This document shows positions 1 to 40,472 of a stretch of DNA of 64,000 nt, piece after piece. The position numbers and the translations under genes are program-made. The DNA is taken from contig NZ_BAABKV010000001.1 in assembly GCF_039544005.1 (NCBI RefSeq), positions 1 to 64,000 of the forward strand, in the 5' to 3' direction. The stretch comes from Kitasatospora paranensis (lineage in GTDB: Bacteria; Actinomycetota; Actinomycetes; Streptomycetales; Streptomycetaceae). The notes under the pieces were generated by a model. That model made no database searches, had not been told where the DNA came from, and was given only the letters and a program-made list of their open reading frames with translations. Each line of letters starts with the position of its first letter. Position 1 is the first letter of the stretch.

Positions 1-93
1 GCCGCTGACGCGGCGTCAGCCGGGGGTGCCGCCTGCGGCGTCACCGTGCGTGGCTGGCCGGCTGCGCCGGGGCGGGCGGGCGGGTGGCGGGGG

Positions 94-114
94 GAATTCG
101 CCGGTGGCGAATTC
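94..114. repeat. Perfect inverted repeat (9-3-9)
   Basis: GAATTCGCC, spacer GGT, then GGCGAATTC: a perfect 9-base inverted repeat. There is no T-tract and no gene next to it, so a rho-independent terminator is not indicated. It could be a protein-binding site or a structural hairpin. A second perfect inverted repeat (CTGACGC-G-GCGTCAG) lies near position 5. Confidence 0.7.
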
Positions 115-184
115 GTGGGCCTGCTTGGGTGGTTGGGGGCTGGTTTGGCGTCGCTGCGCTCCGCCAATCCGTGGACAATGCGCC

Positions 185-253
185 GGGCCTACGGCCCGTC
201 AATCGGTCGGCTTTCCCGGTCAATTGGCCGGTATTTTTCACGGCCCTACGGCC
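185..253. repeat. Two GGCC-TAC-GGCC type hairpins
   Basis: GGGCC-TAC-GGCCC at 185-197 and a related CGGCC-CTA-CGGCCG at 241-254. A third partial copy (AGGCC-TAC-GGCCC) lies at 910-922. They recur only in gene-poor DNA. Function unknown. Confidence 0.45.
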
Positions 254-292
254 GGTTTGCTAACTGGGTTTCTCGGGCTGCGCCGGGGGTGA

Positions 293-402
293 GCGTTGAC
301 GATGTGACGCGAAATTCGGGTAGCGGCCCCTTCCCCGATCGGGAGGGGTGCCGGCCCGGCCTGCGGCGCCGGGCGTTGACGATGTGTCGCGGACTTCGGG
401 TA
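293..402. repeat. Direct repeat of 30 bases, two copies
   Basis: Copies at 293-322 and 373-402 both begin GCGTTGACGATGTG and end TTCGGGTA. They differ at three positions and lie 80 bases apart. No coding explanation is visible. They could be iteron-like binding sites or promoter repeats, since TTGACG resembles a -35 hexamer. Confidence 0.55.
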
Positions 403-660
403 CTAGCCACAACCCTACCCCCGGCCCGCCCCCGGTCCCGACCGATGGCCGGTTCCGCCTTGCGGTTGCTCGACTTTCGGCCCACCCGCCGCCCGTGGGC
501 AGGGCCTGCGGCCCTCGGGAGGAGCGTTCGGTGCCACCTCCGGGGGTCGGTCCGGCCCGGGCCTGACCGACCCCCGTGGCGGGCCCTCACCAGCACCCCG
601 TGCGCCGGTCCCTGACGGCACCTCAACCACAGATTCCCGGCCGGGCATCCAAAGGGTTTA

Positions 661-8014: not shown

Positions 8015-10356
8015 TCAGCGAAGGAGAGGGGCGCTGAGGGCGCCCAGGAGCGCGGTCTGCTGCTCGGTCAGCTTCCCCTCGGTGCGAGCCTTGTCCTGCT
8101 TGCGCAGCCAGGTGCCCGGCCGGAACGTCGGGTCGTCGCCGAGGCCGGTGCGGTTGGCCGGACCGTCGAGGGTTCCGCCGGCTGCGAGGTAGGCGAGCAG
8201 GCGCCGGTAGGAGCGGTTCCAGTCCGGCTCCAGTCGCCACAGCTCGTCCAGGGCGTCGAGCTTCGCCGTCTGGTCGGGGGTGAGGTTCTCGGCCTTGCGC
8301 TGGCGGCGCATCCACGCGCCCACGGCGTAGTCGTCCAGCTTCGCGGTCGCCGGGATGGCGAGGTGGCCGTGCTGGTGGTGGAACGCGGCGGCGTAGGCGG
8401 CCCCGCGTTCCCAGGCGTTGGCGTTCTTCGACCAGATCATGCCGAGCGCGTCCAGCTCCGAGATCCGCGCGGCATCGAGCAGGCCCTGGCCGTTCAGGTG
8501 GCGCTGGCGGGTGAGCCAGGAGATCAGCTCCGCGTGCTTCGCCTTGTCGGTGGGGTCGAGGTGGCCGTGCTCGATGTGGAACCGCGTCGCCAGGCCGTGC
8601 ATCCGCTGCCACTCGACCGCGCGCGGGTTGAACGCCCGCAGCTTCACCGCCTGGAGGATCGCGCCCGCGTGGTGGCGGGCGTTGATCTTCAGCCACTCGA
8701 CCGGCGACTCCCCCGCGGCCGGCTGCTCCCCCTCGGCGGGGCCGGCGCCGGCTGCCTCGTCCTCGGAGGCCCCCGTCGTGGTGGTGTGCGCGGAGCCCTG
8801 GGAGCGGTGGGCCCGCAGCTCGGTGATCCGGCCGACCACGCGGGCGTCGTGCGCGGCGAGGGCGCGCAGGACGCGCCAGATGGTGCGGAAGGAGGAGGCT
8901 TCGATCTCGGTGTCGGCCTCGGCCTTCACGGCCTCTCCGGCGTCGTGGACCTCGGCCGGGTCGGCGGTGGCGGTGTCGTCGCCGACATCGGGCGAGGGAA
9001 GGTAGACGGGGATGATGACCCAGGAGACCTTGCCCTGCCGGTAGGACTGGCGCAGCGCGCGGCCGACGGCCTGGACGATGTCGATGACCGAGCTCTTGGG
9101 GTCGGCGAAGCAGATGGCGTCCACGGCTCGGACGTCGATGCCCTCGGACAGGAGGCGGGCGTTGCAGAGGATTCCGCACTCCTCGCCGTCGTCGCCGGTG
9201 TGGGCCTTGAACTCGGTGAAGGCCTGCTTGCGGTGCTTGAGCTTGTCAGTGCCGGCGATCGCCTTCGCCCAGATCCGCTCGGGCCGGTCGGCGTCGGGCA
9301 GCAGCTCGGCGCTCTCCGGCAGGGTGCCGGCGAACTCCCGCGCCGCCGTCACCCGGGAGTGGAAGGTGATGACCCGGCGCAGGCCGAGGTCGGCGACCGC
9401 GCGCAGCACCGCGATCTGCAGGGCCAGCCTGAGGAGTTCCTCGTTGCTGCGCTGGGAGCGGAGGTCGGCGACGGCGGGGAGGTTGAGGAGTTCGCGCAGG
9501 TCCTCGTCGGTGACGACGGGGACCAGGACGCGGTAGTCGGCGAGGTAGCCGTGCTCGATGCCCTGTCCGAGGGTCCAGGTGAAGCAGGTCTTGCCGTAGA
9601 TCTCCTCCGAGTCCATGGAGCACAGGGCGGGCAGCTTCTCGCCGTCGGCGGTGAGGTCGGACAGGCCGGCCTTCGCCGTGCGGTCGTCGGCGATCCGCGG
9701 GGTGGCGGTGAAGTACAGGCGGCGCTTCGCCGGGATCTTCGCGTCGTCGTGGACGGCCGCCCAGGCCTTCCCTCGGCGCCTGCCGTGCGGTGGGCCTCGT
9801 CGATGACGACGAGGTCCCACGCGGGAAGGCCGTGCAGCTGGTGTGCGGCGGTGATCCGCTCCATGGAGGCGTAGGTGGCGTAGACGGTGACCGGCTCGCC
9901 CGCCTTCGCGGAGGCGACCAGGTCGGCGATGCGCGGGGCCTGGGTGGTGACGGCCGCCTCGATCCGCCCGCCCGCCTCCGCGCTCTCCAGTGCCTCCTGG
10001 CGCGAGCACGCCGCCACCGCCACACCGCGGCGCCCGCCCAGCAGCGACCAGGACTCGGCGGTCTGCTCCAGCAGCTCGATCGTCGGGACCAGGACCAGCA
10101 CCCGGCCGCGCGCCGCGAGGCGCCGGGCGCAGTTCGCGGCGATCAGCGTCTTCCCGGAGCCGGTGGCCAGGACCAGCGTCGCCCGGCCCCCGTTCCTCAC
10201 CTCGCGCACCGCGGCCGCGACCGCGTCCTTCTGGAACCAGTGCAGCGTGATGGGCGCCAGCGTGCCGAGCGGCTGGGCGGGCACGGGCGGCTGCGGGGTC
10301 GGGCGCAGCCCGGCCGGCACGGCGGCCTGGGTGGCGGTGGTGGTCGTGGTCTCCAC
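8015..10356 (-). CDS. DEAD/DEAH-box helicase with helicase-associated repeats (one frame break)
   Basis: About 780 residues after repair. It opens with a superfamily 2 helicase core: Q-like region (LHWFQKDAVAAAVREV), Walker A ATGSGKT, motif II DEAH, motif III TATP, and motif VI in QAVGRALRQSYR. The C-terminal third holds several Trp-containing helicase-associated modules (GHLDPTDKAKHAELISWL, GHLAIPATAKLDDYAVGAWM), as in large actinobacterial plasmid and subtelomeric helicases. The frame breaks near 9771, just after DEAH. One added G/C restores AEGKAWAAVHDDAKIP. The start is the GTG at 10356, with GAAGGAG upstream. It follows the Tap/Tpg-like pair on the same strand, so a role in end or plasmid maintenance is possible. 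Defence is the other plausible role. Confidence 0.8.
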
Positions 10357-10474
10357 GGCTGCGGTGCTCCTTCGGATGCTGAGACGGCTGGGCGGGGGTG
10401 GCGGTGCTGTGGGAGGGTCGCGCGGGCGGCCTCTCCTCGGGGCCAGGTCATGGATGGGGAGAGGCCGCCCGGTC

Positions 10475-11179
10475 CTACTGCTCCTCGGGGATCCAGCCGC
10501 GGACCTCCAGGTAGGCGATGTCGGCATCGGCGACGGCCCGGCCGGTCTCCACCAGCCACTCCCTCATCGCCTCGGTGACGTCACCGTGGTGGTCCGCGAC
10601 CCGCTGGGACCACTCGCCAGCGTCGAACCCGCCGGTGCTGGCGGAGCCGTAGGTGCGCTCCTCGGTGCCGTCCGCGCGCGGGACGAAGCCGCGGCGGATG
10701 CCGCCGGAGTCCTTCTCCGACCCCGCCGAGTACACGTACTGGTCGGCCTTCATCCGGACGGTGAACGCCAACCGGCCGCCGGCTTGGCCTGTCTCATGAA
10801 CGACCGGCGCGAGGTGGGACGCGCCGGACTTGATGGCCTGCCTGCCGGCCCGGCCGGCCATGCTGCCGCCCGCCTCGCCGACCGTGTCCTTGCCCCGCAC
10901 CCGGGCCCTCTGACCGGTCTTGGTGGTGCGCCGCTTGGTGTTCGCCTCTGCCACGGCGGACAGGGCCTCCTCGTCCCGCTCGCCGCCCCGCACCGCACGC
11001 ACCAGCTGGCGCAGCGCGCCGACCATGCTCGCGCCCTTGCCCTTGGTGAAGAACTGAGACACCAGGCTCGCGTCGCGGCCTAGCATCCTGGCGACCTTCC
11101 GCTTGGTGTAGCCCCGGTCGAGCAGCTCCTGGGTCAGGCGCGCGGCCTCGTTCGGGTTCTGCGGATCGGCGGGGCTCAC
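10475..11179 (-). CDS. Tpg-like candidate terminal protein
   Basis: A 234-residue protein. Residues about 12-50 form a helix-turn-helix (YTKRKVARMLGRDASLVSQF). A basic stretch follows (NTKRRTTKTGQRARVRGK), and the C-terminus ends ADADIAYLEVRGW. This layout (N-terminal HTH, basic middle, short acidic C-terminal strand) and its place directly after a Tap-like gene match the tap-tpg pair that primes telomere end-patching in Streptomyces linear replicons. The length lies between classic Tpg (about 185) and the SCP1 type (about 259). The GTG start overlaps the upstream stop as GTGA. Overall similarity to classic Tpg is weak by eye, so this is an inference. Confidence 0.5.
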   Translation of the reverse strand: MSPADPQNPNEAARLTQELLDRGYTKRKVARMLGRDASLVSQFFTKGKGASMVGALRQLVRAVRGGERDEEALSAVAEANTKRRTTKTGQRARVRGKDTVGEAGGSMAGRAGRQAIKSGASHLAPVVHETGQAGGRLAFTVRMKADQYVYSAGSEKDSGGIRRGFVPRADGTEERTYGSASTGGFDAGEWSQRVADHHGDVTEAMREWLVETGRAVADADIAYLEVRGWIPEEQ

Positions 11180-13719
11180 AGGTCAGTCCCCTTCTCGGTG
11201 GCGACGAGTTCGGCGCGGCCCAGGCCGCGCAGCTTCAGGTACTCCTCCTGGCTGGCCGGGTGCTCGACCGGCCCGGTCAGGTGGCCCTTGAGGAGGTAGT
11301 CGCCCGGCTCCCCGCGGTACGGCCAGGGCTGGCGCTCCGTCAGCGCGATGCCGTCCGTACCGAAGTACACGACCGTGCCGGGCTTCGCGTGGAGGGCGCC
11401 GGCGTGGCCGATGACCTCCTTGCCGTGGCGGTACTTCATGTCCAGCAGCGCCGCCCGCGCTCCCGACCACACGTACGCCGCCCACTCCGGGTGGGCGTAG
11501 GGGTCGCGGGAGAACCCGGCCTGCCGCTGCCAGGTGACCACGTCGCCCGCCTGGCCGAGGATCTCGACCCCGGCCGGGAGCGCCTCGCCGACCGGGGTGG
11601 TGCCGGAGACCAGGCGCGGGCGCTGGGCGAAGCCGCCCAGGCCGAACAGCAGCACCGAGCGGACCGCACGGGAGGCGAGGTAGGCGGCCTGCCGCTGGCG
11701 CTCGTCTGCGTGCAGCTTGGAGAGGTTGGTCAGGTCCGCCCACGCGGCCTTCAGGCGCTTGCCCCACTCGTCGAGCGGCTTGCCGTCCTCGAAGAGCAGG
11801 CCGCCGAGAATCTCGACCTTCCACGGCCCCAGGTGGTTCGACAGGGCGAGGTGGACCTCCGCGCCACCCGCCCAGGTGGTGAACGTGGCGCCGGGCTCGG
11901 ACGGGTAGACCCAGGCGCGGTCCCCGGTGACCGGGGCCGGGAGCAGGCCGACGTGGTTCCACCCGGCCGGGACCGTGACGCGCACGTTCCAGTGCGAGCA
12001 GGACATCAGCGCCTTGACCTGCTCGGCCTCCGTCATCGCCGCGAACGCAGCCGCCGTAATCCGGCGCGGGACACCGACCGGGGACTTCCACAGGTGCTTT
12101 GCATAGGCGAACGTGCGGTCGTACTCGACGAGGGCGGGCAGCTGCTCCGGCACCCGGGGCGGCAGGATCAGCTCGGTCCGGCCCTGCCCTCCCGTCGCGT
12201 GCAGCAGACCCCGCAACTCCTCGGACAGCACCGGGTAGCCCCCGGCCCACTTGCCCGTGGTCGGGATGGTGCGCGACCACAGGTCCCGGCCGGTCTGCGA
12301 CGGCGAACCCATCAGCACCGCGTCGTCCCAGTGCCGGCGCAGCGCCTGCCACAGCAGCGTGAACGCCTGGCGGCAGGTGACGACGTCGGCGCCGTCCGGG
12401 TCGAACCACTCCCCCATGGACCGGATCTCCGTGACCGGCCCGTCCGGGGAGGCGGCGGGGGCGTAGCGGCCGACCGGCTGGCGCTGGTGGACGAAGTGCC
12501 CGGCCAGCTTGTCCCGGCCCGAGCCGACCGCGGTCGTCCAGCGCTCGGACGGGGTGTTCAGCCACGCGGCGACCGCGTCCTTGAGCGTGGAGTAGCGCTC
12601 GGCGCCGTCGTGCCACGGGGCACCGGCGGTGATGTAGATGCGCTCCGTGCCCGGCGCGGTCGCCAGGACCGCGTCGAGGATCTCCCCGGGAGTGCGGGTG
12701 CCGAGGTCGAGGCGCACCACGCGGTCGCGCACCGCCAGCTCGCCGGTCGCCGCGTCCAGGAACACCGTCGAGCGGGCCTGCTGTGTGAAGTTCGGGCGTT
12801 TGGACACCAGGCCGGTCGTCACCGCCTCGAACCGGGCACCGGCCGGGCCCTCGGGAAGGGCGGGCAGCTCACGCGGGCCGACAGCGACCGGAGCAACCGG
12901 AGCCGCCGGGACAGCGGGCGCAGCCGGGGCGGGCTGCTCGACGACGGCCTGGTGCTCGGCCTCGGTCGGCGCCTCGACGGGCGGGGCGGCCGGGGTCGGC
13001 TGCTCGAGTACGGCAGCCGGGCGGGTCAGCGCCGGGGCAACCGCGGCGACGGGCTCGACGACCGGCTCGGCCACGGGCGCCGGGGCGGGCACAGCGGCGG
13101 CGGCCCGGTCGTCGGCCTTGGCGGCGCGGACGGCGGCCGGGGTCGGGTCCAGCAGCGGGGCGATCCGCACGACGTCGCCGAGCGACAGGCCCGAGGCCTT
13201 CGCGATGGCCGGCGCCTGCGCGCCCTCGTACCCCGCGAGCCCGGCCACCCTGCGCGCACGCTGGGCGGTGAGCTTGTCCAGCTCCTTCTGCGCGGCCGCG
13301 ACCAGCTTCTCGGCGGCCGTGATCTCGGTGCGCAGCTCGCGCAGGCCGGCGAGCTCGGCGGTGTACGTCTTCCGGTCCATCAGCGACTCACTCCCCTGGG
13401 TGTCGGGCTGGTGGGCAGTGTCGTGGGGGCGGGCCTGACGGGCCAGGGTGAGCCAGCCGTCGGGGCCCTGGGTGCCGTGAATGTCAGCCAGACCGGCGAG
13501 GAGGAACGCATAGGCACCGCGCTTCGGGGCGCGCGGCTGCGCGGTGCCGTTCTCCCACTTGGCGAACGTCTCGCGCCGTGTCTGCAGCGCCTCGGCCACC
13601 TCGACCTGGGTGAGGCCGGCGGCCTTGCGCAGCCGCTCCCGCTCGGCCGGTTCCGGCAGGTCACCACCGTCCCGGGCCCTGGCCAGCAGCGCGTCCACCG
13701 CCGCGAAGATCTCAGACAT
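11176..13719 (-). CDS. Tap-like telomere-associated protein candidate
   Basis: An 847-residue protein. The N-terminus (residues about 20-75; AERERLRKAAGLTQVEVAEA, then ETFAKWENG and PKRGAYAFLLAGL) is the XRE-type domain I know from Streptomyces Tap proteins. A long helical and Ala/Pro-rich linker follows to about residue 300. The C-terminal 550 residues (from about TGLVSKRPNFTQQ) are globular and do not resemble the classic Tap C-terminus that I recall. The start is the ATG at 13719 with AGGAGG just upstream; an in-frame GTG at 13722 lies too close to it. It is coupled to the Tpg-like gene. The replacement of the C-terminal region may reflect a different telomere sequence. Confidence 0.55.
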   Translation of the reverse strand: MSEIFAAVDALLARARDGGDLPEPAERERLRKAAGLTQVEVAEALQTRRETFAKWENGTAQPRAPKRGAYAFLLAGLADIHGTQGPDGWLTLARQARPHDTAHQPDTQGSESLMDRKTYTAELAGLRELRTEITAAEKLVAAAQKELDKLTAQRARRVAGLAGYEGAQAPAIAKASGLSLGDVVRIAPLLDPTPAAVRAAKADDRAAAAVPAPAPVAEPVVEPVAAVAPALTRPAAVLEQPTPAAPPVEAPTEAEHQAVVEQPAPAAPAVPAAPVAPVAVGPRELPALPEGPAGARFEAVTTGLVSKRPNFTQQARSTVFLDAATGELAVRDRVVRLDLGTRTPGEILDAVLATAPGTERIYITAGAPWHDGAERYSTLKDAVAAWLNTPSERWTTAVGSGRDKLAGHFVHQRQPVGRYAPAASPDGPVTEIRSMGEWFDPDGADVVTCRQAFTLLWQALRRHWDDAVLMGSPSQTGRDLWSRTIPTTGKWAGGYPVLSEELRGLLHATGGQGRTELILPPRVPEQLPALVEYDRTFAYAKHLWKSPVGVPRRITAAAFAAMTEAEQVKALMSCSHWNVRVTVPAGWNHVGLLPAPVTGDRAWVYPSEPGATFTTWAGGAEVHLALSNHLGPWKVEILGGLLFEDGKPLDEWGKRLKAAWADLTNLSKLHADERQRQAAYLASRAVRSVLLFGLGGFAQRPRLVSGTTPVGEALPAGVEILGQAGDVVTWQRQAGFSRDPYAHPEWAAYVWSGARAALLDMKYRHGKEVIGHAGALHAKPGTVVYFGTDGIALTERQPWPYRGEPGDYLLKGHLTGPVEHPASQEEYLKLRGLGRAELVATEKGTDL

Positions 13720-18049: not shown

Positions 18050-19305
18050 TGGTCCTGCGTCTCTTCCCGGGGCTTGCACAGGTCCTTGTAGTCCGGGTGC
18101 CAACCGACGGCACGGTCCGGGACCGCGGTGTCCGCTTGGTCGGCCAGGCTGTGCATGGTGCCGCGGCCGATCCACGGCGCGGTGATGCTGCCGGGGCGGG
18201 CGGGTCTGTCGGCGGCCCTGTCCATGGTGTCGTCCAGTACGGCCTGGCCGAGGGACTCGCGTTCGGGTGCGGGCATGTCGCCGTGGAAGCGGCGGGTGCG
18301 ACGGCGGAAGACGTGCTCCCACTCGTCGTGCAGTTCCTGCTCGTACTCACCGAGCCGCTCGGGTGTGATCTTGAAGGTGCGCAGCCATTCGGAGCGCTGG
18401 GCGCGTGCGTAGTGGTACTCGCGCAGGTGCATGGCGATCTCCGGATCGGGCAAGCTGATCCATCGCATCTGGTTCACGACGAGTTGGTCCTCGTAGCCGG
18501 CGATCTCGGCCTGGGTGAGGTTGCGCAGGGTCTCAGTGATCGGCAGGTTCTTTCCGGCGTACCGGTCGAGGACTTCGTCCCTGCGGCACATGAGCTCCTG
18601 GGCGCTGACCGCAGGTCGCTTGCGCTGGGGGTTCTTGCGGTCCAGCAGGCCGACAGCCATGCCGTACCACCACCCTTTGATGTCGTCGAGAGCGGCTTGA
18701 GCGTGGTCGCTCGGTGTGATCCCCAGCTCTTTGGCCAGACTAGGGTTCAGGTCCGACATCACCGGGGCGCCGTCATCGACCGTGATGGCGTCGACCAGTT
18801 GGTGGCGCTGCGACGGAGTCAGTGCCATGAACAGTTCGCGGTCTTTCGCCGTGCCGTCCGCGCCGTTCTCGTCCCCGGCGATCTTCTCCATCCGGGCCAG
18901 TGCGGCACGAGTGTCCCGGTCGGCTCCGGAGCGGAGCATGGAGAGAAAGGTGTCGGCGGGAGCGACCTGGGTCGAGACCAGGCGCAGCAGCGGCATCGCT
19001 GCGCTCGAGGAGGCTGCGATGGCTTCCAGGGCATCGATCCATGAGGCGACCGAGCGCCAGAGATCCTTTCCGGCTTCGCTCAACGGGCCGGCTGCTTCGC
19101 GGTGTTTGGACTGGATCAGTTCCAGCGGGGTGTAGCTGTCAGGGTCCAGGAACTCGATGTCGTCGAGGACTTCCATCCGGACGGCGCAGGACGCGTCTTC
19201 CCAGCTACGGCGCGCGAGTTCCAGCAGAGCCAGTTCGCACTGGTAGAGGTATCCGGTCATCTGGCCTGCGGCCGAATGCGAACCAGCTTGCGCCACGTTG
19301 CCCAC
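18046..19305 (-). CDS. ABC-3C third component with nuclease-like N-terminal domain
   Basis: About 419 residues if the GTG at 19305 is the start; an ATG at 19404 is also possible. The N-terminus reads QMTGYLYQCELALLELARR, then EVLDDIEF and LELIQSKH. This is the usual pattern of a PD-(D/E)xK-like domain (acidic residue, then E-x-x-Q-x-K) at the front of ABC-3C effectors. The C-terminal half (GWWYGMAVGLLDRK, MRWISLPDPEIAMHLREYH) fits the family's C-terminal domain. It is first in the operon of three and probably the effector. Confidence 0.75.
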   Translation of the reverse strand: MGNVAQAGSHSAAGQMTGYLYQCELALLELARRSWEDASCAVRMEVLDDIEFLDPDSYTPLELIQSKHREAAGPLSEAGKDLWRSVASWIDALEAIAASSSAAMPLLRLVSTQVAPADTFLSMLRSGADRDTRAALARMEKIAGDENGADGTAKDRELFMALTPSQRHQLVDAITVDDGAPVMSDLNPSLAKELGITPSDHAQAALDDIKGWWYGMAVGLLDRKNPQRKRPAVSAQELMCRRDEVLDRYAGKNLPITETLRNLTQAEIAGYEDQLVVNQMRWISLPDPEIAMHLREYHYARAQRSEWLRTFKITPERLGEYEQELHDEWEHVFRRRTRRFHGDMPAPERESLGQAVLDDTMDRAADRPARPGSITAPWIGRGTMHSLADQADTAVPDRAVGWHPDYKDLCKPREETQDQ

Positions 19306-19528
19306 TACTGATCGTGCTTGCCCGAGCGGCGCGCTCCTGTGGTTCCGCTGATCACCTGCGACCGACGGTCCGGGCGGTCTGCCGCTCCCCCGTGGCGACA
19401 ACATAGCACTGGTTCGGCAGCCTTCACCCAGCTCTGCCGATGAGCTGTCACATGCTCGACTGCGAGGGCAGCCACTTGTCAGGCGGTGGGCCAGGCCCTA
19501 TCCAAAGACGCGCACAAACATCACACCG

Positions 19529-21863
19529 TCAGGCGACTTCGGGGAGCTCCGGTTCCAGGAACCGAGGCACAACTGGCAGGCCGAGCGCGTCGAGCGCTGC
19601 GGCCTGTTGGGAGGTGAGCTGGGCGGCGTCGTACCGGCGCTGGTCGATCCAAATGTCCAGTCTGACGTGGTCGGTACCGACGACCTCGACATGTCCGTCG
19701 GGAACCTGAAGGTGGCCTTCGCGTCGGAGGAACCTGCGCGCGGCGCTCAGTCCGCGCGCGAAGCTCATCGCCGGGCCGGTGGTCTGCCGAAACAGCAGCA
19801 GGGCATGGGGGTGAAGGTCCGGGTACTGGCGTGCCAGGAGAGCCAGTTGGGCGAGCTGCCCCGGCTCCAGGATGTGGTTCTGCTCGATCTGGTGGTCCAG
19901 CCACGCCCCCAGTGAGAGGTTCGTCTCGGCAGCGACCTGGTACGTGAGCCGCCAGTCGCCGGTGGCGAGGCAGCGCCGCAGCCGGGCGCAGTTGTACTGC
20001 CAGTCGATGCTCCAGGCCGGATTCCAGCAAGGGTCGGTGGAGTTCAGCGCCTCGATGCGTTCGGGGGCAGCTCGTCCTCGCGGGTCATGGCTCGCATCTG
20101 GTCGAGCCACCGGGCCAGGCCGGCGTCCACGTCGGGGGTACCGGCGTGGACTGCGAGGGTGTGGTGGGCGGTGGCGAAGTCGCGGGCCAGGGCGAGGTTG
20201 TGTTCGAAGCTGCCAGGTGGGTGGGGCCAGGAGATGCGCAGCGCGTACAGGGCGAAGGCCTGGTCGGGGTCGAGGGTGCCCTCGGCATAGCGGTTGCGCT
20301 GTTCGCCGATCCAGGAGCCGAGGTGGACGCCGGCGGAGTCCCGGTGGTCGGTGGGGACTTCGAGATGGCCGTGCTCCTCGTAGAAGCGCATGGCGGCCTC
20401 GTAGCCGCTGTTCCAGCCGTCGCCCTGGAACTGGTGGGCTCGCAGGGAGAGTACGTCGGCGATCTCGTCGGGGCGCTCGGGCTCGGTCAGGACCGGGTCC
20501 TCGGAGCGGCGGCCAGAGCCGCGGCGCAGGCGGGTGTAGAACTTGCTGTCAGCGGTGCGCAGCCCGTCCAGGATGGCCCACAGGTCGCGGAAGTCGGAGG
20601 ACTCCATGGCCTCACGGGTGGTTTGTCCCGGGCGGATGTACACGGGGATGATCAGTGTGGCGATCTTGCCGCTGCCTGGCGGCTGGCGCAGGGCGCGGCC
20701 GAGGGTCTGGATGATGTCGACGACGCTGCGTTTGGGGTCGGCGAACAGCACCGCGTCGGCTTCGGGCATGTCGACGCCTTCGCCCAGGCATCTGACGCTG
20801 CTGAGAATGTGCGTGTGGGACTGTCCGGGCAGGAGGGCGGTGCGGCTCTGCCAGGAACTTCCCGCGAAACGCCAGAGCTTGGTGTTGCGCTCGGAGCGGG
20901 GCTGGCGGCTGTCGACAGCGGCAGCCCACAGTTGCATCGGCTGGCCGCCCTGGGTGAAAGCCGTGGCGGTGCGCGGCAGGGTCCGGGCGAAGGTGCGAGC
21001 GGCCGCAATCAGGCGGTGGAACGTCAGGACACGGCTGAGGCGGTAGTCCTGTATGGCGCGCAGCAGTCCCACTTGCATGGCTGCCAGGCGCAGTCCGTCC
21101 AGGTGAGGGGTGGTCTCGGCCGTGGTGAGGATGTCGTGCAGGTCCTCCGCGCTGATCACGGGGACGACGACGCGGTAGTCGGCGAGGATGCCCTGGGCGA
21201 TGGCTTCGGCCAGTTCGAGGCGGAAGACGACGGGTCCGAACAGTGCGGGATTGTCCATCGATGCCAGTGGTTGCTTGTACGCGCCGGGTTTTCTGGACTT
21301 CGGGTGGCTCCAGCGGCGTGGCGTCGCCGTCATGTAGAGGCGGCGCTGCGCGGGGATCTGGGCATCATCGTGGATGTCACCCCAGCTCTTGTCGAGACTG
21401 CCGGTGGTGTGATGGGCCTCGTCAGCGACGGCGAGGGCCCACTCCGGCAAGCCGTGGCGGCGGTGAGCCTCGACGATCGCAGGCAGGGACTGGTAGGTGG
21501 AGAAGACGATGGTCGGGCCGCTGTGGTCGGCGACACGGCGGGCGGGTTCGGCCGGGCTGGTGGTGAACGGGATGCACAGGGCGCCTCGGCCGGACGGGGG
21601 CAAGGCGCAGACCGCGATGTGCTTCTCGTCCGGGCGGCCGCGGTCCCACTCGCGTGCTGTCTGCGCCACCAGATCCTGGCTGGGGGCGAGCACGAGGATG
21701 TTGCCGTGGGGGTGTAGGTGTCGGCGCTGGCCCGGGCGATGACGGTCTTGCCGGTGCCGCAGGCCGCGACCACGGTCACTCTTGAGTGGCGCTGGAGGCC
21801 TGCGGTGATGGCGCCGACGGCGCGTTGTTGATGCGGACGTAGTCGGATGGGCTTGTGGGGCAC
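19529..21863 (-). CDS. Second DEAD/DEAH-box helicase with helicase-associated repeats (two frame breaks)
   Basis: About 778 residues after repair. RLRPHQQRAVGAI and Walker A CGTGKT start the helicase core. ADEAHH, TATP and QTLGRALRQP are motifs II, III and VI. C-terminal Trp modules (GHLEVPTDHRDSAGVHLGSW, ETNLSLGAWLDHQIEQ) are helicase-associated repeats. Breaks lie near 21710 (in a G/C run after DTYTP) and near 20066 (after DELPP); one added base at each restores the reading. The start is the GTG at 21863, though coding sense may extend further upstream. Same layout as the 8015-10356 gene, so a paralogue. It precedes the ABC-3C operon on the same strand by about 220 bases and may belong to it. 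Confidence 0.75.
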
Positions 21864-22320
21864 GTGGGCGTCCTCGGCGACCGGCAGCTGGATCGGCGGG
21901 GCGATCGCCGTGCCTGCATGGCTCGTGCCCCGCTCCGGACACCAATTCGATCGGCTTTCCGGCGTTCCTTGTCAAGCAGGCTTCGAAATTCTCGTCGATT
22001 TGACTGCCAGGGTGGCGCCTTCAGGACCCTAAATGTCATTCTGATTCGTTCGGTTCGCCTTGATGCCGCCGTTCCGCGTGAATCGGCTGAGCCGCGGGCG
22101 CCGGGGAGCCACCTCGCGGCTCACCGAGCCAGTACCATCAGCCGGGTTTCAGCAGGCAGGACAGGAGCCACCCCGCCAGGCAGCCGAAGGTGACGTGTCC
22201 CGGCCCCCGCAGTACGGAGGCCAACCACTTCAGCCGCCTTCTGCGGCGGCCCCTTCGGAGCGAGGAAACGCTCCTCCTATTCGGCCGCCCGGGCGACCCT
22301 TCTCATATTCGGCAGATCAC
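21864..22320. other. Non-coding stretch left of the transposon genes
   Basis: No gene seen. ATTCGGC occurs at about 22279 and 22305, and GAATCGGC at about 22076, close to the ATTCTGCA of the right-end repeats. A TGTCA at 22034 is a second candidate for the left terminus of the transposon. Confidence 0.45.
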
Positions 22321-22417
22321 TGTCAAGAATTGGTGCGCTTTGCCGGATTCTTTTCCCTGTTCCTGCTCCTCGTGCCGCTCGGCGTGATAGCCATGGCCGC
22401 AGAGGCGAGGGAGGGTC

Positions 22418-23422
22418 ATGGATTCGGTAGCGGCTTTGAATCGGGTACGGGCGCGTGAGCTGCCGTTGCACGTCCGGTTCATGGCAGGCGAGTCGACCGG
22501 CTCCTACGTGACCCGCCTGGCCGGCCGCAACGGGCTCGAGGTCCAGCAGTTGCTGGACGAGGTCGGGCATGGCAGCACGAGGGCCGTCGCGCCACACCTG
22601 ACCGAGCTCTACCTCAACCGTCCTGCCGCCGAGCGCCTGGCCGCCCTGGCGGGCCGTCCGCTGGAGGTGATGCGGCGGGCACTCGCGAGCCTGGACGCGG
22701 CGTACCTGCTCGACGACGGTGACGGAACTCCCGCCTGGTCGTTCCCGTGGGCGGTGCGGGACGGCTATCTCGTGCGGGCCTGCGCGTTGTGCGCGGCCCG
22801 CCGCGGCATCGGTGAGCCGGCCTGGATGATGGTGGCGGACCCCTGGCACCTGTGCGCCCGGCACGCACGGTGGTCGGACAACTCCCGTGATCCGCAGACC
22901 CCTTGGATCGACGTGGCCGACTGGCCGCAGATCCTGGCGACGGAACACCAGCGGGTGGCCATGGTGCGGTGCCTGGGCCGCACCGCACGCGCACTGTTCG
23001 CCGACGCGCACACGATGAGCAGAGCCGAATCGAGCGCACCGGACAGACTCCAGTCGATGGCCGACCGGCTCGGGGAGGCGCGGACCGCGTCCTTGTTGTC
23101 CTACCCGCACACCGTGCGCATCGCCCGCGTCCTGGCGCGGGCCGAGCGCCGCCGACTCGGCCGGGAGCTGACGGCGGACTCCTACGAGGACTGGTTCACG
23201 CGCAGCTCACAGGAGTTGGGGCCCAGGCACCGGGGAGTGCTGAGGCGGTGGATGGAGTGCCACAAGCCGGTGCCTGGCCCGGCGCCAAGGCGCGGGGGTG
23301 AGTTGGGGCGGGCCGTGCTGGTCACGCCGCACACACGGATCGCGCCGCTGGATTCGGTGCACCAACTCAGCTGCCTGCCCTCCGGCCCGGTGGCCAGCCC
23401 GTTCGACCGGCCCTTCCTGTGA
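22418..23422 (+). CDS. tniQ: TniQ family target-site selection protein
   Basis: A 334-residue TniQ family protein. The N-terminal GESTGSYVTRLAGRNGL is the family's opening motif. A zinc site is formed by CALC (122-125) and CARH (146-149), followed by the family's HARW. TniQ/TnsD proteins link target DNA to the AAA+ regulator in Tn7-like transposition. It is the first gene inside the left end, with the TnsA-like gene next. An ATG at 22418 follows GAGGGAGGGTC, a good ribosome-binding site. At this length it is a TniQ rather than a long TnsD. Confidence 0.85.
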   Translation: MDSVAALNRVRARELPLHVRFMAGESTGSYVTRLAGRNGLEVQQLLDEVGHGSTRAVAPHLTELYLNRPAAERLAALAGRPLEVMRRALASLDAAYLLDDGDGTPAWSFPWAVRDGYLVRACALCAARRGIGEPAWMMVADPWHLCARHARWSDNSRDPQTPWIDVADWPQILATEHQRVAMVRCLGRTARALFADAHTMSRAESSAPDRLQSMADRLGEARTASLLSYPHTVRIARVLARAERRRLGRELTADSYEDWFTRSSQELGPRHRGVLRRWMECHKPVPGPAPRRGGELGRAVLVTPHTRIAPLDSVHQLSCLPSGPVASPFDRPFL

Positions 23423-23534
23423 CGGCCGTGGTCCGCCAGGAGCGGGGGCGGCTCCCATGGGACGAGGCGCCCCTTATTTATCCGCAGAAAGCAGGTCAGG
23501 GACGAGTGGATGCGGCACGGGAGAGGTGATCCTT

Positions 23535-24242
23535 GTGCAGGTGCGGGTGCGTTACCGCGACGGGGACGGGCGGATGCGTGAGAGTGGCCCAGACCAGGTG
23601 CGGGCGGTGCCGCTGGAACGGTGCGAGCCATTGCGTGAACCACACGCCTACAACGGCCGACCGTCGATCTTGACCCGGTACTGGTCGGCGACCACAGGCG
23701 GCATGGTGGTGTGCGGCAGTGAGCGGCTGATGCACGCGGCCATGCTGCTGGACTACGACGCCGCCATCACCTGCTTCTCGGCCCCCGCGACCGAGATCGC
23801 CTGGGAGGACGGCAGCGCCCATGGAACGGTCAGCCCGGCGTTCTTCGCCCGCACCGCTGACGGGCGGCGGCTGGCGATCGTGCACCCGGGCCGCGCGGAG
23901 CCGGACGGCGCGCGCGAACGCCAGGCGCTGGAGATGGCGGCGCAGGCCGCCGGGTGGACACTGACGGACCTGGACGTCCCCATCGGGGTGCGGCTGGCAT
24001 GGCTGAAGGTGGTGGCCAACTTCCGGTTCCCCGAACTGTTCGACACAGCGACCCGTCCGGCCCTGCTGGACACCTTCCGCCAACCCCGCCCGCTGGTCCG
24101 CGGAGTAGCCGAAGCCGGCCTGCCCGACACCGCCCTCGCCCACGCCTGGCACCTGCTGTGGCGCGGCGACCTCCTCTTCGACCAGGCACGGCCCCTGATC
24201 CCCGTCTCCGCGGCGTGGACCGCCGACACAGCCCACCGGTAG
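23535..24242 (+). CDS. TnsA-like protein with degenerate catalytic site
   Basis: A 235-residue protein placed where Tn7-like elements carry TnsA, the endonuclease that frees the 5' ends. The order CGSERLMHAAMLLDYD, then FSAPATEIAW, then SPAFFARTADGRRLAIVHPG follows the actinobacterial TnsA-like pattern. The Glu is present (residue 63). The expected Asp of the PDFFA motif is Ala (residue 102), and the D/Q-x-K end is VHPG. It is therefore probably not an active nuclease and may be structural. The GTG start at 23535 was chosen because GAGAGGTGA lies at proper spacing; a GTG at 23526 is an alternative. The transposase gene begins eight bases after it. Confidence 0.65.
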   Translation: MQVRVRYRDGDGRMRESGPDQVRAVPLERCEPLREPHAYNGRPSILTRYWSATTGGMVVCGSERLMHAAMLLDYDAAITCFSAPATEIAWEDGSAHGTVSPAFFARTADGRRLAIVHPGRAEPDGARERQALEMAAQAAGWTLTDLDVPIGVRLAWLKVVANFRFPELFDTATRPALLDTFRQPRPLVRGVAEAGLPDTALAHAWHLLWRGDLLFDQARPLIPVSAAWTADTAHR

Positions 24243-24250
24243 GAGGCGTC

Positions 24251-26704
24251 GTGACGCTCGATTTGGCAACCGTGGAGGCACGGGCGACGTCCGTCCACGC
24301 CACGTGGGACCGACGTCGCGTGGACCTGACGCCGGGAGTGACAGTGCGCTGGCTGGGCGGCCTGTACGAGGTCGCCGCCCTCCAAGGCCCCCGGGTGCAC
24401 CTGCACGCCTTGGACGAGAACGGCGAGGACGCCGTCGCGCTGGTATCCGCAGTGACCTGCGCCGCCGACTTCGCGCTGGTGGAGGCGCAGGGCCGGGAGC
24501 GGCCCGGCCCGCGGATCCCGGACGTGAGCATCGTGGACGTGCTCGACCCCCTGGAGCGCGAGCGAATGCGCACCTGGGAGTGGCACCTGCACGAGGTCGT
24601 TCACGGACTGCCGCCTGGCGCGCCCTCGGGCACCCGGCCGCGCCCGCAGTACGACCCGGAAGAGACGTCGCGGTGGAGCCGACTGGACGCCAAGTCCCGC
24701 GAACTCAAGGACCTGGGCTGGGCGAAGGTGTCAGTCGCAACACTGCGGCGCCGCGCCCAGGACTACGAGGAGCGGGGCGTCGCCGGGCTCGTGAAGATCG
24801 TCGCCGGGTCCCTGTACGGCGACACCGACGAGCGGATCGTCCAGTTGCTGCTGGAGGAACTCCGCGCCGGGACGGAGGAGTCCTCGGGGTGGGCCAACCG
24901 GCTGCGGGAGCGGGTCGAAGCCCGGCTGCGCGCTGAGTTTCCGAAGGAGGGCCTGAGCCTGTCGCGGACCGGGTTCTACCGGCTGCTGAAGGACCTGGGC
25001 GTGCGGGTGGAGACGCTGCGCGGGCCGGTGCGCCGCCGCGAGGAGCGGGCCAGCTCGCCCGAGCCGCCCTGGTCGCCGACCCGGGCGGCGATGCTGGGCG
25101 AGGTGGTGCAGATCGACTCCACCGGGCTGGACATCCTGGCTGTCGGCGACCACGGCTACCCGGTCCAGGTCGAGCTGACCGCAGCGATCGACGTGGCCTC
25201 GCGCAGCATCATCGCGGCGATGATCGTGCCCCGTGCTCCGGGCCGCGGTTACAAGGGCAAACGCCTCGGCGGGCGGGCGACCACCTATTTCGATGCGACG
25301 CTGATGCTCGCCCAGGCGCTCGCGCCGATGCCCGGACGGCCCGGCTGGTCGCCGTCCGCAGCGGCCGAGAAGGCCCGCCACCTGCCGTACGCGGACCTGG
25401 TGGCGTGCGACCCGCGGATGGCCGGCGCCGCGGCGCGTCCGGTGATCCGCCCGAAGATGGTGGTCGTCGACCAGGGCAGCATCTACCAGAGTGAGCACTT
25501 CACCGACGTGTGTACCTCGCTGAAGATCTCGGTGCGCTCAGCGCGCGACCGCACCGCCGACGACAAGGCCGTCATCGAGTCGACGTTCAGCGCGATCAAG
25601 AAGCTGTTCTGCCAGTACGTCGCCGGGTACACCGCGCGTGACCTGTCCCGGCGCGGGAAGTTCGTGACCGAGGGCGTCATGTGGCGCCTCAACGAGTTGC
25701 AGGACCTTCTGAACGAGTGGATCGCGCTGGGCTGGCAGCAGCACCGCCACGAGGGCCTGCGCGACCCGCACCTGCCCGGGGTCGTGCTGACCCCGAACCA
25801 GATGTACGCGGCGCTGGTGGCCTGCGAGGGCTACGTGCCGCTGCCCCTGTCGGAGTCGCAGAACCGCAAGCTGCTGCTGTGCGAGTGGCGGCAGGTCACC
25901 GACAAAGGTGTGCGGATCGGCAACCGCACCTACGACAGCCGGGCCCTGCAGGAGTACAACAAGGAGCCGTCCGGGGTACGCGGGAAGGGCATGAAGTGGC
26001 CCATCCGCCACGACCCCTACAGCCCGCGCTACGTGTGGCTGTTCGACCAGCGCAAGGAGCAGCGCGGCGAAGACCCTTGGGTGGAGGCGGAGTTCGTCCA
26101 CCAGGACCTCATCGGGGACGACTGGTCGCTGTTCTTGTGGGAGACCGCCGAACGCCTGCGGCTCGAGGCCGGCGGCAGCGAGGAGGACCGGCAGTGGGAG
26201 CGCGACATCGCGCTGGAGGTGTCCGAGCTGCGTCGGCGCGCCAGGCAGGGCCCCGCCGACGAGCCGGCCACGCCGACGCGACGCGGCCGCGGGCGTACAC
26301 GCTGGCGCCGCCCCGCGGCCCCGTACACCGGTCCCGGCCTCGCCGTGCGCGCGCCTGCCGTTGGCCGGTACGCGGGCATCCCGGCGCCCGACCCGGCCCG
26401 GGTGCGCCCCGCCAGGTCGCTGAACGTCCCGGCCCACTTGCTGTTCGCCGGCGCGGCCCTGGCCGGCCCCGAACCGTCCCCGACCGCTTCGCCCGCGCCG
26501 CCGGGCGCGAACAGCGTTGACAGCCCGCCCTCGGGCACGGACACCGACGCGGCCCTGCCGGGGCCGGCGAAGGCGCCCGATCCGCGGCGGTGGCGTTCGC
26601 GCACGCTCTCCGGTCGCGCCACCGACCTGTTCCTGCGCAGCCTCGCCCCGGCCCCCGATGACAGCGACAGCCCGGACCCGTCCGGCGACGAGGAGATCAC
26701 ATGA
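24251..26704 (+). CDS. tnsB: TnsB/TniA-type DDE transposase
   Basis: An 817-residue Mu/Tn7-type integrase-fold transposase. An N-terminal DNA-binding region with HTH-like helices (VSVATLRRRAQDYEERGVAG) precedes the catalytic core. The triad is D289 (EVVQIDSTG), D407 (VVVDQGS) and E443 (DKAVIEST), with the usual 35-residue D-to-E spacing. A Mu-type C-terminal beta domain follows (SESQNRKLLLCEW), then a long Pro/Ala-rich tail that may contact the AAA+ partner. AGGAGG precedes the GTG. Its stop overlaps the ATG of the next gene as ATGA. Confidence 0.9.
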   Translation: MTLDLATVEARATSVHATWDRRRVDLTPGVTVRWLGGLYEVAALQGPRVHLHALDENGEDAVALVSAVTCAADFALVEAQGRERPGPRIPDVSIVDVLDPLERERMRTWEWHLHEVVHGLPPGAPSGTRPRPQYDPEETSRWSRLDAKSRELKDLGWAKVSVATLRRRAQDYEERGVAGLVKIVAGSLYGDTDERIVQLLLEELRAGTEESSGWANRLRERVEARLRAEFPKEGLSLSRTGFYRLLKDLGVRVETLRGPVRRREERASSPEPPWSPTRAAMLGEVVQIDSTGLDILAVGDHGYPVQVELTAAIDVASRSIIAAMIVPRAPGRGYKGKRLGGRATTYFDATLMLAQALAPMPGRPGWSPSAAAEKARHLPYADLVACDPRMAGAAARPVIRPKMVVVDQGSIYQSEHFTDVCTSLKISVRSARDRTADDKAVIESTFSAIKKLFCQYVAGYTARDLSRRGKFVTEGVMWRLNELQDLLNEWIALGWQQHRHEGLRDPHLPGVVLTPNQMYAALVACEGYVPLPLSESQNRKLLLCEWRQVTDKGVRIGNRTYDSRALQEYNKEPSGVRGKGMKWPIRHDPYSPRYVWLFDQRKEQRGEDPWVEAEFVHQDLIGDDWSLFLWETAERLRLEAGGSEEDRQWERDIALEVSELRRRARQGPADEPATPTRRGRGRTRWRRPAAPYTGPGLAVRAPAVGRYAGIPAPDPARVRPARSLNVPAHLLFAGAALAGPEPSPTASPAPPGANSVDSPPSGTDTDAALPGPAKAPDPRRWRSRTLSGRATDLFLRSLAPAPDDSDSPDPSGDEEIT

Positions 26705-27872
26705 ACGACCATGTCCGCGCCCGCCCGGTGCCCGCGGCCAAGGCCGCCACGCACCCCTTGCACCTGGCCGATCCCGGGCCGCTGGCGACCAAGGAGGGCT
26801 TCCTCGCCCGGGCTCGACGCACCGTCACCCCGCCGGGCCTTCAAGACAGCGCGCCCCTGGGCACGAAGGTGCGGCTGACCGACCCGCGCCTGGCCTACCA
26901 CGGCACTCTGCTGCCCTTGGAGACCGACGACTTCGCCCGAGGAGTGCACCTCGCCCGGACCATGCTGGTGAAGAACCTGTACGACTCCCCGGCCGCAGCC
27001 CGAACTTCGCCGTCGACGGACCGCGACTTGCCGGCAAGTCGCTACTCGCCGCCAGGATCGGATTCGCCTTCCAGGGCCTGGTCGACCACCACTTCCCCGC
27101 GGACGCAGACCGGCACCCGGTGGTGTACATCCACGTGCCGCACGACCGCAGCGACGCCCTGCACTGGTCCCTGCCGTTCGCGGAGTACTTCGGCCTGGAG
27201 CACTCCCGCTCGCCCGAGACGATGAACCACCGCTCCGTCGACATGACCGGTCCCATCACCCGCGTCATGGAACGCGCCGGCACGCGCCTGGTCATCGTCG
27301 ACGGCATCGAGTACATCAAGGACAACGAGCGGCAGACCGCGTTCGACTACCTGTTTCGACTCCAGGACGCCCTGCCGAGGATCACTTTCCTGTTCTGCGG
27401 CATCGGCGCGCAGGGGATCCTGCACCACGCCCTCGGCGACCACCGCAGCAAGGCGCCCGCAGCGGGCGCCGACCGGCCGGCGCCGCTGGGCATCCCGACG
27501 CTGTGGGTCAGGCCCGTCCCCTACACCGCCGCCGAACCCGACCAGTGGTGCAACGTGCTCGACGACGCCGAAAAGAACCTGCGCCTGTACAAACACCAGC
27601 CCGGCACCCTGGTGCAGCTGGCCGCCTACCTGCACGCACGTACCGACGGCTCCATGCACGCCCTGAACCAACTGCTGTGCCAAGCCGCGCAGACCAGCAT
27701 CCTCCAGCAGACCGAAGCCATCGACCGCAAACTCCTGGAGACCATCCTCACCGGCTACAACGACCCGACATACGACTGCCTGCCAGCCCTGGCCGAACCG
27801 GCCACTGACGAAGCCGACGGCGACCCGCAAGCCCAGGCGAGGCTGGACGACGCGGAACAGTCGGACTCGTAG
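26701..27872 (+). CDS. tnsC: TnsC/TniB-type AAA+ transposition regulator (one frame break)
   Basis: About 390 residues after repair. The N-terminus (MNDHVRARPVPAAKAATHPL) leads to LARTMLVKNLYDSP. The frame breaks near 27000 in a C run, and one added C gives PNFAVDGPRLAGKSLLAARI, the Walker A of an AAA+ protein. Walker B-like LVIVDGIEYI and an arginine-rich second half follow. TnsC/TniB proteins form ATP-dependent filaments that pass target information from TniQ to the transposase. The ATG overlaps the transposase stop. Confidence 0.8.
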
Positions 27873-27904
27873 CACAGCTTTCCAATGCGCTGGGCCGGCT
27901 GGAC

Positions 27905-30268: not shown

Positions 30269-30746
30269 ACCAGCCCTCTGCGAGCACCCGAGCCGAGTCA
30301 GCCGAACCAGCGGCAGCCCGAGGACAGGCACACCAACAGCCGACACGAGAAGGGGCCAGGTGATCGTCCCACCGAACCAAGATCAACAGCGCTGAGGCGA
30401 CCCCATCCTCCATACAGCGATTGTCCCGACTCAACTGAACAGCGGTCCCAGATTCTGCAAAGTCACAGGCCACAAGCCATGAAAAGTCAATCACGGCAGC
30501 AAAACCGCAGTTCAGGTAGCCAAGCTCTAAAGTCCCAGATTCTGCAAGCCCAATGGTCAACACATGATCAATTGACAAGATCTTTCAAAGCACCCGGGAC
30601 GGAGCACCCGGCCCGCTCCGAAGCCATGGTCCACGTCGCGATGATCAGCCTCACCTCATGACCCGCCGACTCACCGGCGAAACCACCCCAACGTGGCGCG
30701 GAACCTGACCACCAAGGTCAGGGACGAAACGCCCAGTCAGAGAAGT
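30269..30746. other. Non-coding transposon right end and flank, AT-richer
   Basis: No gene. The transposon's right-end repeats and terminus lie here. Outside the terminus the DNA stays AT-richer than the window average and runs into the immunity gene. Confidence 0.6.
30445..30547. repeat. Two 16-base transposase-binding candidates
   Basis: GTCCCAGATTCTGCAA occurs identically at 30445-30460 and 30532-30547, start to start 87 bases. The second copy is 26 bases inside the TGACA terminus (30573-30577). Same-orientation repeats behind a TGTCA end are typical of transposase binding sites in Tn7-like elements. Confidence 0.75.
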
Positions 30747-31391
30747 TCAGAATGTATATGACTCGCCGCCTGTCCACGGGTTGACACCGGACGCCCGCAG
30801 CCGCAGATCTTCCTTCCAGTTGAAAAATCTCGGCGCGGGGTTATCCCAAATCGGGCCAAGAACCTGTCGAGCCCCGATGAGAGATCCCGAAATTCCACCC
30901 ACAAGGAAATCCAGCATGCCGCAGGAGTAAAATTCCCATCGCACTGCCGACCGATTAAATACAGCGACAGGCCATGGATCTCCGGCTTCCATCAATATCC
31001 AGCAATACATATTTCCATCAAAATCACCTCCCCATTGAATAAGCTCAAGATTGCCACCTCCTCCGGCTCGACTACCAGCCTCTTCCATATAGACGCTGGC
31101 AGCCGTGCCAAGTTCGGAGAGGATGCAGGTATACGGACCCCCGAGGTCACCCAGTGAAATCGGGGAAAAGATATCCAGGTAATCCTCTATGCCACCCGCC
31201 CCATATGCATTCATGAATTCGATGTAATCGTCTGGCAGGCCAAATCCTAGAGCCCTGCCAACCTCATCCCAGTCAAATCGATCACCCGCGCCCGCCTGCG
31301 GGTCCATAATCTCGAGGAGCCGGTCGATATGCACATCTACCCCAGTTTCTAGTTCGTCGGCACGACACTGCCAGTCCGCGAATCCGTCCAT
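30747..31391 (-). CDS. SMI1/KNR4 (SUKH) family immunity protein
   Basis: A 214-residue protein. FDWDEVGRALGFGLPDDYIEF with a following NAYGAGGIEDYLDIFSP is the SUKH opening. QWGGDFDGNMYCWI and GDPWPVAVFNR fit the family's later strands. SUKH proteins neutralise cognate nuclease toxins of polymorphic toxin systems. It overlaps the end of the nuclease gene by 43 bases on the same strand, the expected toxin-immunity order. The region has visibly lower GC than the rest of the window, a sign of recent transfer. Confidence 0.85.
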   Translation of the reverse strand: MDGFADWQCRADELETGVDVHIDRLLEIMDPQAGAGDRFDWDEVGRALGFGLPDDYIEFMNAYGAGGIEDYLDIFSPISLGDLGGPYTCILSELGTAASVYMEEAGSRAGGGGNLELIQWGGDFDGNMYCWILMEAGDPWPVAVFNRSAVRWEFYSCGMLDFLVGGISGSLIGARQVLGPIWDNPAPRFFNWKEDLRLRASGVNPWTGGESYTF

Positions 31392-32068: not shown

Positions 32069-32324
32069 GCCCGGACAGGCGGCCTCCTACCTCGCCGGCC
32101 TTGCCGCCCAGCACTGCACTCTCATCATCACCGTCGGCAGCCCCGGATCGGCGATCCCCGCCCTCCTCAAAGCAGATCCTCGTCTCCACTTCACCGCCAT
32201 CGACTCACCCCTCACCGCGCCCAGCGCCAACCTGACCCTCCTCACCCACGCCGACCTGACCGGACCACTGACCTCACAGATCCGTGGCCTGGCTCCAAGT
32301 GAGGCAGCCACCGGCAGTCCGTAA
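32008..32324 (+). pseudogene. Fragment of a substrate-binding (BMP-like) protein gene
   Basis: A short open stretch encodes LQQLTIPDTKPGQAASYLAG, then CTLIITVGSPGSAIPALLKA and LHFTAIDSPL. This resembles the middle of periplasmic binding proteins of the basic-membrane-protein type. There is no signal peptide and no end domain. It begins exactly where the toxin domain on the other strand loses sense, which suggests a recombination junction. Family assignment is tentative. Confidence 0.4.
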
Positions 32325-40464: not shown

Positions 40465-40472
40465 CCGACTGG

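What the first reader, a model, noticed from the sequence alone, without database searches (positions are those of the whole stretch)
10475..13719. Divergent Tap-Tpg-like pair: candidate for a new telomere class
The N-terminal HTH and gene order match Tap and Tpg, but the 550-residue C-terminus of the first and most of the second differ from the classic forms. Several streptomycete linear replicons are known to have non-classic telomeres with their own terminal proteins.
Basis: partly seen in the sequence, partly recalled or inferred. Interest (0 to 1): 0.75.

Follow-up and report, generated by a model that had tools for sequence, protein, structure and literature searches.

The report
Chromosome-end copying genes of Kitasatospora
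Near the tip of a linear bacterial chromosome sit two genes, relatives of the Tac and Tpc proteins known from the SCP1 plasmid, that very probably prime and start the copying of the chromosome's last bases, and the larger protein looks like a hidden, degenerate relative of the phi29 virus DNA polymerase.

Summary
The pair is real and lies 10-14 kb from the end of an 8.41 Mb linear Kitasatospora-type chromosome with inverted terminal repeats of at least 48.7 kb. It is not Tap-Tpg. It is homologous to tac-tpc, the SCP1-class system (about 55%/46% identity to pFRL3, 33%/29% to pSCO2), in the operon HTH - tac - tpc - helicase. The genome has no Tap and no intact Tpg. The terminal 400 bp is a hairpin-rich telomere found at contig ends of 17 of 70 genomes of the genus, all of which carry tpc. 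Fuller copies show that the window lacks about 50 outermost bases and that the true end starts with a G-run, like SCP1-type ends. Those were reported only from plasmids (Tac-Tpc itself was noted in K. viridifaciens); here they cap chromosomes. The apparent 848-residue fusion is probably an assembly indel. New: Tac and Tap, published as unrelated and without polymerase motifs, are homologous (P 3e-6), and Tac resembles a degenerate protein-primed family-B DNA polymerase (invariant motif A and C aspartates, sub-threshold Pfam DNA_pol_B_2 hits, phi29 polymerase as top Foldseek match of a poor model). The polymerase link is probable, not proven.

The parts
1..650 (.). Telomere: hairpin-rich terminal DNA (e.g. 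GCCGC-TGAC-GCGGC at 1-14, GAATTCGCC-GGT-GGCGAATTC near 95-115, GGGCC-TAC-GGCCC near 185-200); about 50 outermost bases are missing
   Evidence: Homologues at contig ends in 17 of 70 genomes; longer ends start GGGGGCGGA; stems conserved
8015..10370 (-). Helicase with HA repeats (TtrA-like), start approximate; frame changes near 9766
   Evidence: Pfam HA and Helicase_C; tblastn with the K. cathayae helicase in two frames; same operon position in K. cathayae
10475..11179 (-). tpc homologue, proposed terminal protein, 234 aa with N-terminal HTH
   Evidence: Homologous to the tpc neighbours of pFRL3 and pSCO2; AlphaFold model pLDDT 84
11176..13380 (-). tac homologue, 734 aa, proposed protein-primed polymerase
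   Evidence: Homologous to tac of pFRL3 and pSCO2; homologous to Tap
12100..12123 (-). Proposed motif A of Tac, YDRTFAYA, with D421
   Evidence: Position; D invariant in nine diverse Tac
11614..11670 (-). Proposed motif B region of Tac, RAVRSVLLFGLGGFAQRPR
   Evidence: Position; aligned with Tap and phi29 polymerase counterparts
11338..11367 (-). Proposed motif C of Tac, YFGTDGIALT, with D676
   Evidence: Position; D invariant in nine diverse Tac; aligned with YCDTDSIHLT of phi29 polymerase
13387..13719 (-). Tap-type HTH gene, separate in relatives, read through into tac here (end approximate)
   Evidence: NF047542 match to residues 4-131; junction comparison
18702..64000 (.). Part of the terminal inverted repeat that is present at both contig ends (runs on to about 67404)
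   Evidence: 99.96% identity to the reversed right end

Best explanation
This is the end-patching operon of a Kitasatospora linear chromosome: a Tap-type HTH protein, Tac, Tpc (the terminal protein) and an HA-type helicase. After the internally started fork reaches the tip, a 3' overhang of folded hairpins remains. Tac, perhaps with the HTH protein, binds it and holds Tpc; Tac attaches the first dGMP to Tpc and copies the outermost bases, so Tpc ends up covalently on the 5' end and cellular polymerases fill the rest. Tac and Tap are proposed to be one family, degenerate protein-primed family-B DNA polymerases that keep the aspartates of motif A (D421) and motif C (D676). Shown here: gene pair, homology to tac/tpc, linear replicon, conserved hairpin telomere, co-occurrence of telomere and tpc, Tac-Tap homology. 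Inferred: binding, dGMP addition and capping (from SCP1 Tac/Tpc biochemistry, PMC4513846) and the polymerase fold.
For: Operon conserved in plasmids and chromosomes. pFRL3 and pSCO2, listed as SCP1-type telomere plasmids (PMC8743542), carry the homologues. Linear replicon. No Tap, no intact Tpg. Telomere at contig ends in 17 of 70 genomes, all with tpc (chance 2e-5). G-run ends in fuller copies and on both ends of a complete Streptomyces chromosome with tac in both arms. Stems 93.5% paired against 35-48% for slid partners. Tac-Tap homology: Tac profile finds Tap at E 6e-6 and 1e-5; hhalign P 3.3e-6, score 51.4 against at most 20.8 in 60 shuffles. Polymerase: hypothesis recorded; Pfam DNA_pol_B_2 hits E 4.4e-4, 1.5e-3, 0.015; phi29 polymerase at Foldseek ranks 1-3, next E 0.9; viral DNA polymerases at ranks 3-6 of the viral library; both aspartates invariant. 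Tap and Tac prime without added polymerase (PMC4513846).
Against: The AlphaFold model of Tac is poor (pLDDT 50), so the Foldseek matches (TM under 0.2) are weak support. Direct profile comparison of Tac with phage polymerases is not significant (P 0.12-0.24; 2 of 60 shuffles reach it) and of Tap with them neither. No Tac reaches the Pfam cut-off, and the window's own Tac has no hit. The first aspartate of motif C is missing. Covariation in the telomere stems is modest. Many tpc-bearing genomes show no telomere match, which I ascribe to truncated assemblies. Covalent attachment and activity were not tested.
Confidence: 0.75

Rival explanations
1. Tac-Tpc does cap these ends, but Tac is not a family-B polymerase: it is a hairpin-binding scaffold or another kind of nucleotidyltransferase, and the motif resemblance is chance or convergence.
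For: Profile comparison with phage polymerases not significant; poor model; first motif C aspartate absent; PMC4513846 found no polymerase motif.
Against: Three Tac relatives hit the same Pfam family out of 24,736; phi29 polymerase ranks first among 350,542 chains with a gap to the next; prediction was recorded before these tests.
Confidence: 0.25
2. A wholly new telomere class whose terminal proteins are unrelated to known ones.
For: The telomere finds no DNA match among plasmids outside Kitasatospora that covers more than a short stretch; the proteins miss the standard Tap models.
Against: Clear homology of both proteins to those of pFRL3 and pSCO2; G-run start in fuller ends.
Confidence: 0.06
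3. The pair is a plasmid-derived passenger and another, unseen protein caps this chromosome.
For: tac-tpc often sits on plasmids and some genomes carry several copies; the genus also has Tap genomes.
Against: Telomere occurs only in tpc-bearing genomes; this genome has no Tap or intact Tpg; the operon lies inside the terminal 14 kb here and in G050, G059.
Confidence: 0.1
4. The HTH-Tac fusion of 848 aa is a real natural fusion, copying the domain order of Tap.
For: The ORF is open throughout and Tap has the same order.
Against: Separate genes in all 14 relatives checked, and the homologous TGA is present out of frame; the assembly carries indels in G/C runs and the helicase is also frame-broken. 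The right-arm copy of this stretch is missing, so it could not be checked.
Confidence: 0.2

Closest known systems
Tac-Tpc telomere system of SCP1-class linear plasmids (SCP1, pSCO2, pFRL3)
   Same: Adjacent tac and tpc with homologous proteins; hairpin-rich telomere starting with a G-run in fuller copies
   Different: On a chromosome; proteins 33-55% (Tac) and 29-46% (Tpc) identical to the plasmid forms; own telomere sequence with only a short similarity to pFRL3; a Tap-type HTH gene and an HA helicase in the operon
Tap-Tpg system of archetypal Streptomyces telomeres
   Same: Tap N-terminal HTH domain; Tac is a distant homologue of the Tap C-terminal half; gene order
   Different: Far below the Tap model cut-off; Tpc not detectably Tpg beyond an HTH stretch; HTH usually a separate gene
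Tac-Tpc homologues of Kitasatospora viridifaciens (PMC7188733)
   Same: Same genus and system; its plasmid pKVP2 carries 91%/81% identical genes
   Different: No telomere sequence, operon or mechanism was described there
Protein-primed family-B DNA polymerases (phi29 type)
   Same: Order of motifs A, B, C; aspartate and tyrosine of motif A at the same spacing; second aspartate of motif C; terminal-protein priming; best fold match
   Different: Similarity below family cut-offs, first motif C aspartate missing, only short synthesis reported for Tac (PMC4513846)

Membership tests
Tac-Tpc (SCP1-class) telomere system | Both proteins homologous to Tac and Tpc of SCP1-type plasmids | tested here: met
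   pFRL3 and pSCO2 homologues; SCP1's own record was not held, so not compared directly
Tac-Tpc (SCP1-class) telomere system | tac and tpc adjacent in one operon | tested here: met
   Overlapping genes; same in relatives
Tac-Tpc (SCP1-class) telomere system | Telomere begins with a run of G | tested here: inconclusive
   Met in G055, G037 and, nearly, G056 homologous ends and in G567; the window's own end is cut short
[quoted passage not shown]
   Needs biochemistry; known for SCP1 (PMC4513846)
Archetypal Tap-Tpg | Full-length match to the Tap family model over its cut-off | tested here: not met
   84 bits over residues 4-131 against 600
Archetypal Tap-Tpg | Small protein related to Tpg over its length | tested here: not met
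   Profile comparison aligns 65 HTH columns only, P 0.013
Archetypal Tap-Tpg | Archetypal telomere palindromes | not tested
   No archetypal sequence was compared base by base
Family-B DNA polymerase, protein-primed (Pfam DNA_pol_B_2) | Match over the Pfam gathering score | tested here: not met
   Best 19.7 bits against 25.8
Family-B DNA polymerase, protein-primed (Pfam DNA_pol_B_2) | Motif A aspartate and aromatic residue five positions on | tested here: met
   D421..Y426; D invariant, Y or F in nine diverse Tac
Family-B DNA polymerase, protein-primed (Pfam DNA_pol_B_2) | Motif C with both aspartates (YxDTDS) | tested here: not met
   Second aspartate invariant, first replaced by G, R or other
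Family-B DNA polymerase, protein-primed (Pfam DNA_pol_B_2) | Family-B fold | tested here: inconclusive
   phi29 polymerase top match but model of low confidence

The most novel reading that the evidence does not exclude
Tac and Tap are one family of degenerate protein-primed family-B DNA polymerases, so that streptomycete chromosomes, said to lack any family-B polymerase, finish their ends with a domesticated phi29-type enzyme; and SCP1-class telomeres are common chromosome ends in Kitasatospora.
Probability: 0.7. Interest if true: 0.85.

Novelty: new variant of a known kind. Interest (0 to 1): 0.7.

Why it matters
[quoted passage not shown] The alignments here join the two into one family and name two aspartates that can be mutated to test a family-B origin. 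The telomere sequence gives a marker for true ends in Kitasatospora assemblies and shows a class known from plasmids on chromosomes.

Tried and rejected
Tap and Tpg models on the pair: HTH only. PHROGs and PDB sequence searches: nothing for the bodies of the proteins. Viral contigs: no relatives. SCP1 and pSLA2-L records by accession: not held. Free-energy folding of bases 1-250: no more stable than shuffles (z -0.64), so the telomere case rests on position, conservation and paired stems. Perfect hairpins in bases 1-400: 3, reached by 5 of 313 background windows, so suggestive only; fuller ends have 6-7. Foldseek with the Tpc model: weak Y-family polymerase hits with TM about 0.2, treated as noise. 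hhalign of Tap with phage polymerases: not significant. VIA-align lists several family-B polymerases at Z about 5 among unrelated folds, and phi29 polymerase is not among its rows; not counted as support. Circular replicon: rejected by the terminal repeats. Ends of several tac-bearing plasmids were read; most records looked truncated, one Kitasatospora plasmid (NBC_01300) has related ends on both sides.

Full report
What is there. The window is the left end (bases 1-64000) of a single 8.41 Mb contig. On the minus strand lie an 848-codon ORF (11176-13722) and a 234-codon ORF (10475-11179) that overlap by GTGA, followed by a helicase with HA repeats. Residues 4-131 of the large protein match the Tap model at E 9e-24, the remainder does not, and the small protein matches no family over its length. 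The closest named relatives are from Kitasatospora, from which I infer the genus.

The replicon is linear. The right end of the contig, reversed, is 99.96% identical to window 18702 onwards for 48.7 kb. The outer 18.7 kb is missing on the right, most simply an assembly truncation. The two copies differ by 14 indels, mostly in G/C runs, and one substitution, so this assembly has indel errors.

The HTH 'fusion'. In 14 relatives the HTH is its own gene of about 110 codons, ending just before the tac start; the window keeps the same TGA out of frame because of a small length change in the linker. The helicase also changes frame near 9766. Given the indels, both are probably errors. The likelier description is a four-gene operon, HTH - tac - tpc - helicase, as in K. 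cathayae.

Identity of the pair. tblastn finds tac and tpc side by side in plasmids of Kitasatospora and Streptomyces, including pFRL3 (about 55% and 46%) and pSCO2 (33% and 29%). A 2021 survey lists SCP1, pSCO2 and pFRL3 as the SCP1-type telomeres, all plasmids, and says pSCO2 carries tac and tpc (PMC8743542). A 2020 paper reports Tac-Tpc homologues in K. viridifaciens, without telomere sequence (PMC7188733). SCP1 itself was not in the collections.

No classic system. The only strong Tap-model match in the genome is this HTH (all candidates scored). A Tpg profile finds no intact gene, only fragments near 414.4-414.7 kb that could be a remnant.

The telomere. The first 400 bases have homologues at contig ends in 17 of 70 genomes of the genus, two of them weaker. 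All 17 carry tpc; 41 of 70 do; chance about 2e-5, ignoring shared ancestry. Some ends run about 50 bases further than the window and start GGGGGCGGA. In 12 aligned ends, 93.5% of cells in five stems pair, against 35-48% when partners are slid, and three pairs show changes on both sides; the number of further pair types does not exceed the shuffles, so covariation is modest. The complete Streptomyces chromosome G567, with tac in both arms, starts GGGGG(G)CGGGGGGCATAAATGCCCC at both ends, so SCP1-class ends are chromosomal there too. In Streptomycetaceae 72 of 297 sampled genomes match the Tac profile, in an even draw over the phylum 2 of 396. Tap searches in the other genomes scored only part of their candidates, so absence of Tap there is less certain.

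Tac and Tap are related. PMC4513846 shows that Tap and Tac each start protein-primed synthesis without another polymerase, and states that they share no homology and no polymerase motif. Here a Tac profile finds Tap itself in two genomes at E 6e-6 and 1e-5. A profile comparison of the C-terminal halves gives P 3.3e-6, score 51.4 against at most 20.8 in 60 column shuffles; only the Tap rows in which the motif A pattern was found entered that set. A comparison of whole proteins, without that selection, gave P 5.5e-4.

Tac resembles a family-B polymerase. From the alignments I proposed motif A at D421, motif B at 571-589 and motif C at D676, and wrote it down before the tests. Across relatives about 30% identical, both aspartates are invariant. 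Pfam DNA_pol_B_2 matched pSCO2 Tac (E 4.4e-4), Kineococcus (1.5e-3) and Microbacterium (0.015), all below the cut-off of 25.8 bits. Foldseek with the Tac model put phi29 polymerase at ranks 1-3 (E 1-2e-3; next 0.9), one of them the complex with its terminal protein, and viral DNA polymerases near the top of the viral library. Against this, the model is poor, the direct profile comparison with phage polymerases is not significant although the motifs line up, and the first motif C aspartate is missing. I rate the polymerase relation at about 0.7.

Mechanism. By analogy with SCP1 Tac and Tpc, Tac binds the folded 3' overhang and Tpc, adds dGMP to Tpc and extends a short stretch; cellular polymerases complete the gap. 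For this locus these steps are inferred. The roles of the helicase and of the separate HTH protein are guesses from their place in the operon.

Verdict. A chromosomal, divergent branch of the known Tac-Tpc class, with a telomere sequence I found undescribed, and a testable claim about what Tac and Tap are.

Noticed in passing
window 15583-19404 (-): Likely ABC-three-component (ABC-3C) system: DUF3732 ATPase-like protein, Middle Component 3 and CTD7 protein; it lies next to the telomere operon.
   Followed up: partly
window 20044-21975 (-): A second DEAD/HA-type helicase, besides the one in the telomere operon.
   Followed up: no
window 42326-44020 (-): Mu/Tn7-type transposase (rve and Mu-transpos_C). 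TnsA/TniB-type elements also lie near the ends of two Kitasatospora plasmids (L049, L154).
   Followed up: no
window 30001-32000: Local drop in GC to 0.575 in an otherwise 0.67-0.77 region.
   Followed up: no
G000:C1:414409-414735: Fragments matching a Tpg profile in different frames, possibly the remnant of a lost classic tpg.
   Followed up: no
L105, last bases (G031:C126): The contig ends in a transposase-adaptor sequence joined to telomere sequence, so it was not trimmed.
   Followed up: no
G004, G006, G016, G041, G064 and others: A second, divergent group of Tap-like proteins matches the Tap model at about 300 bits, half the cut-off; its telomeres are unknown.
   Followed up: no
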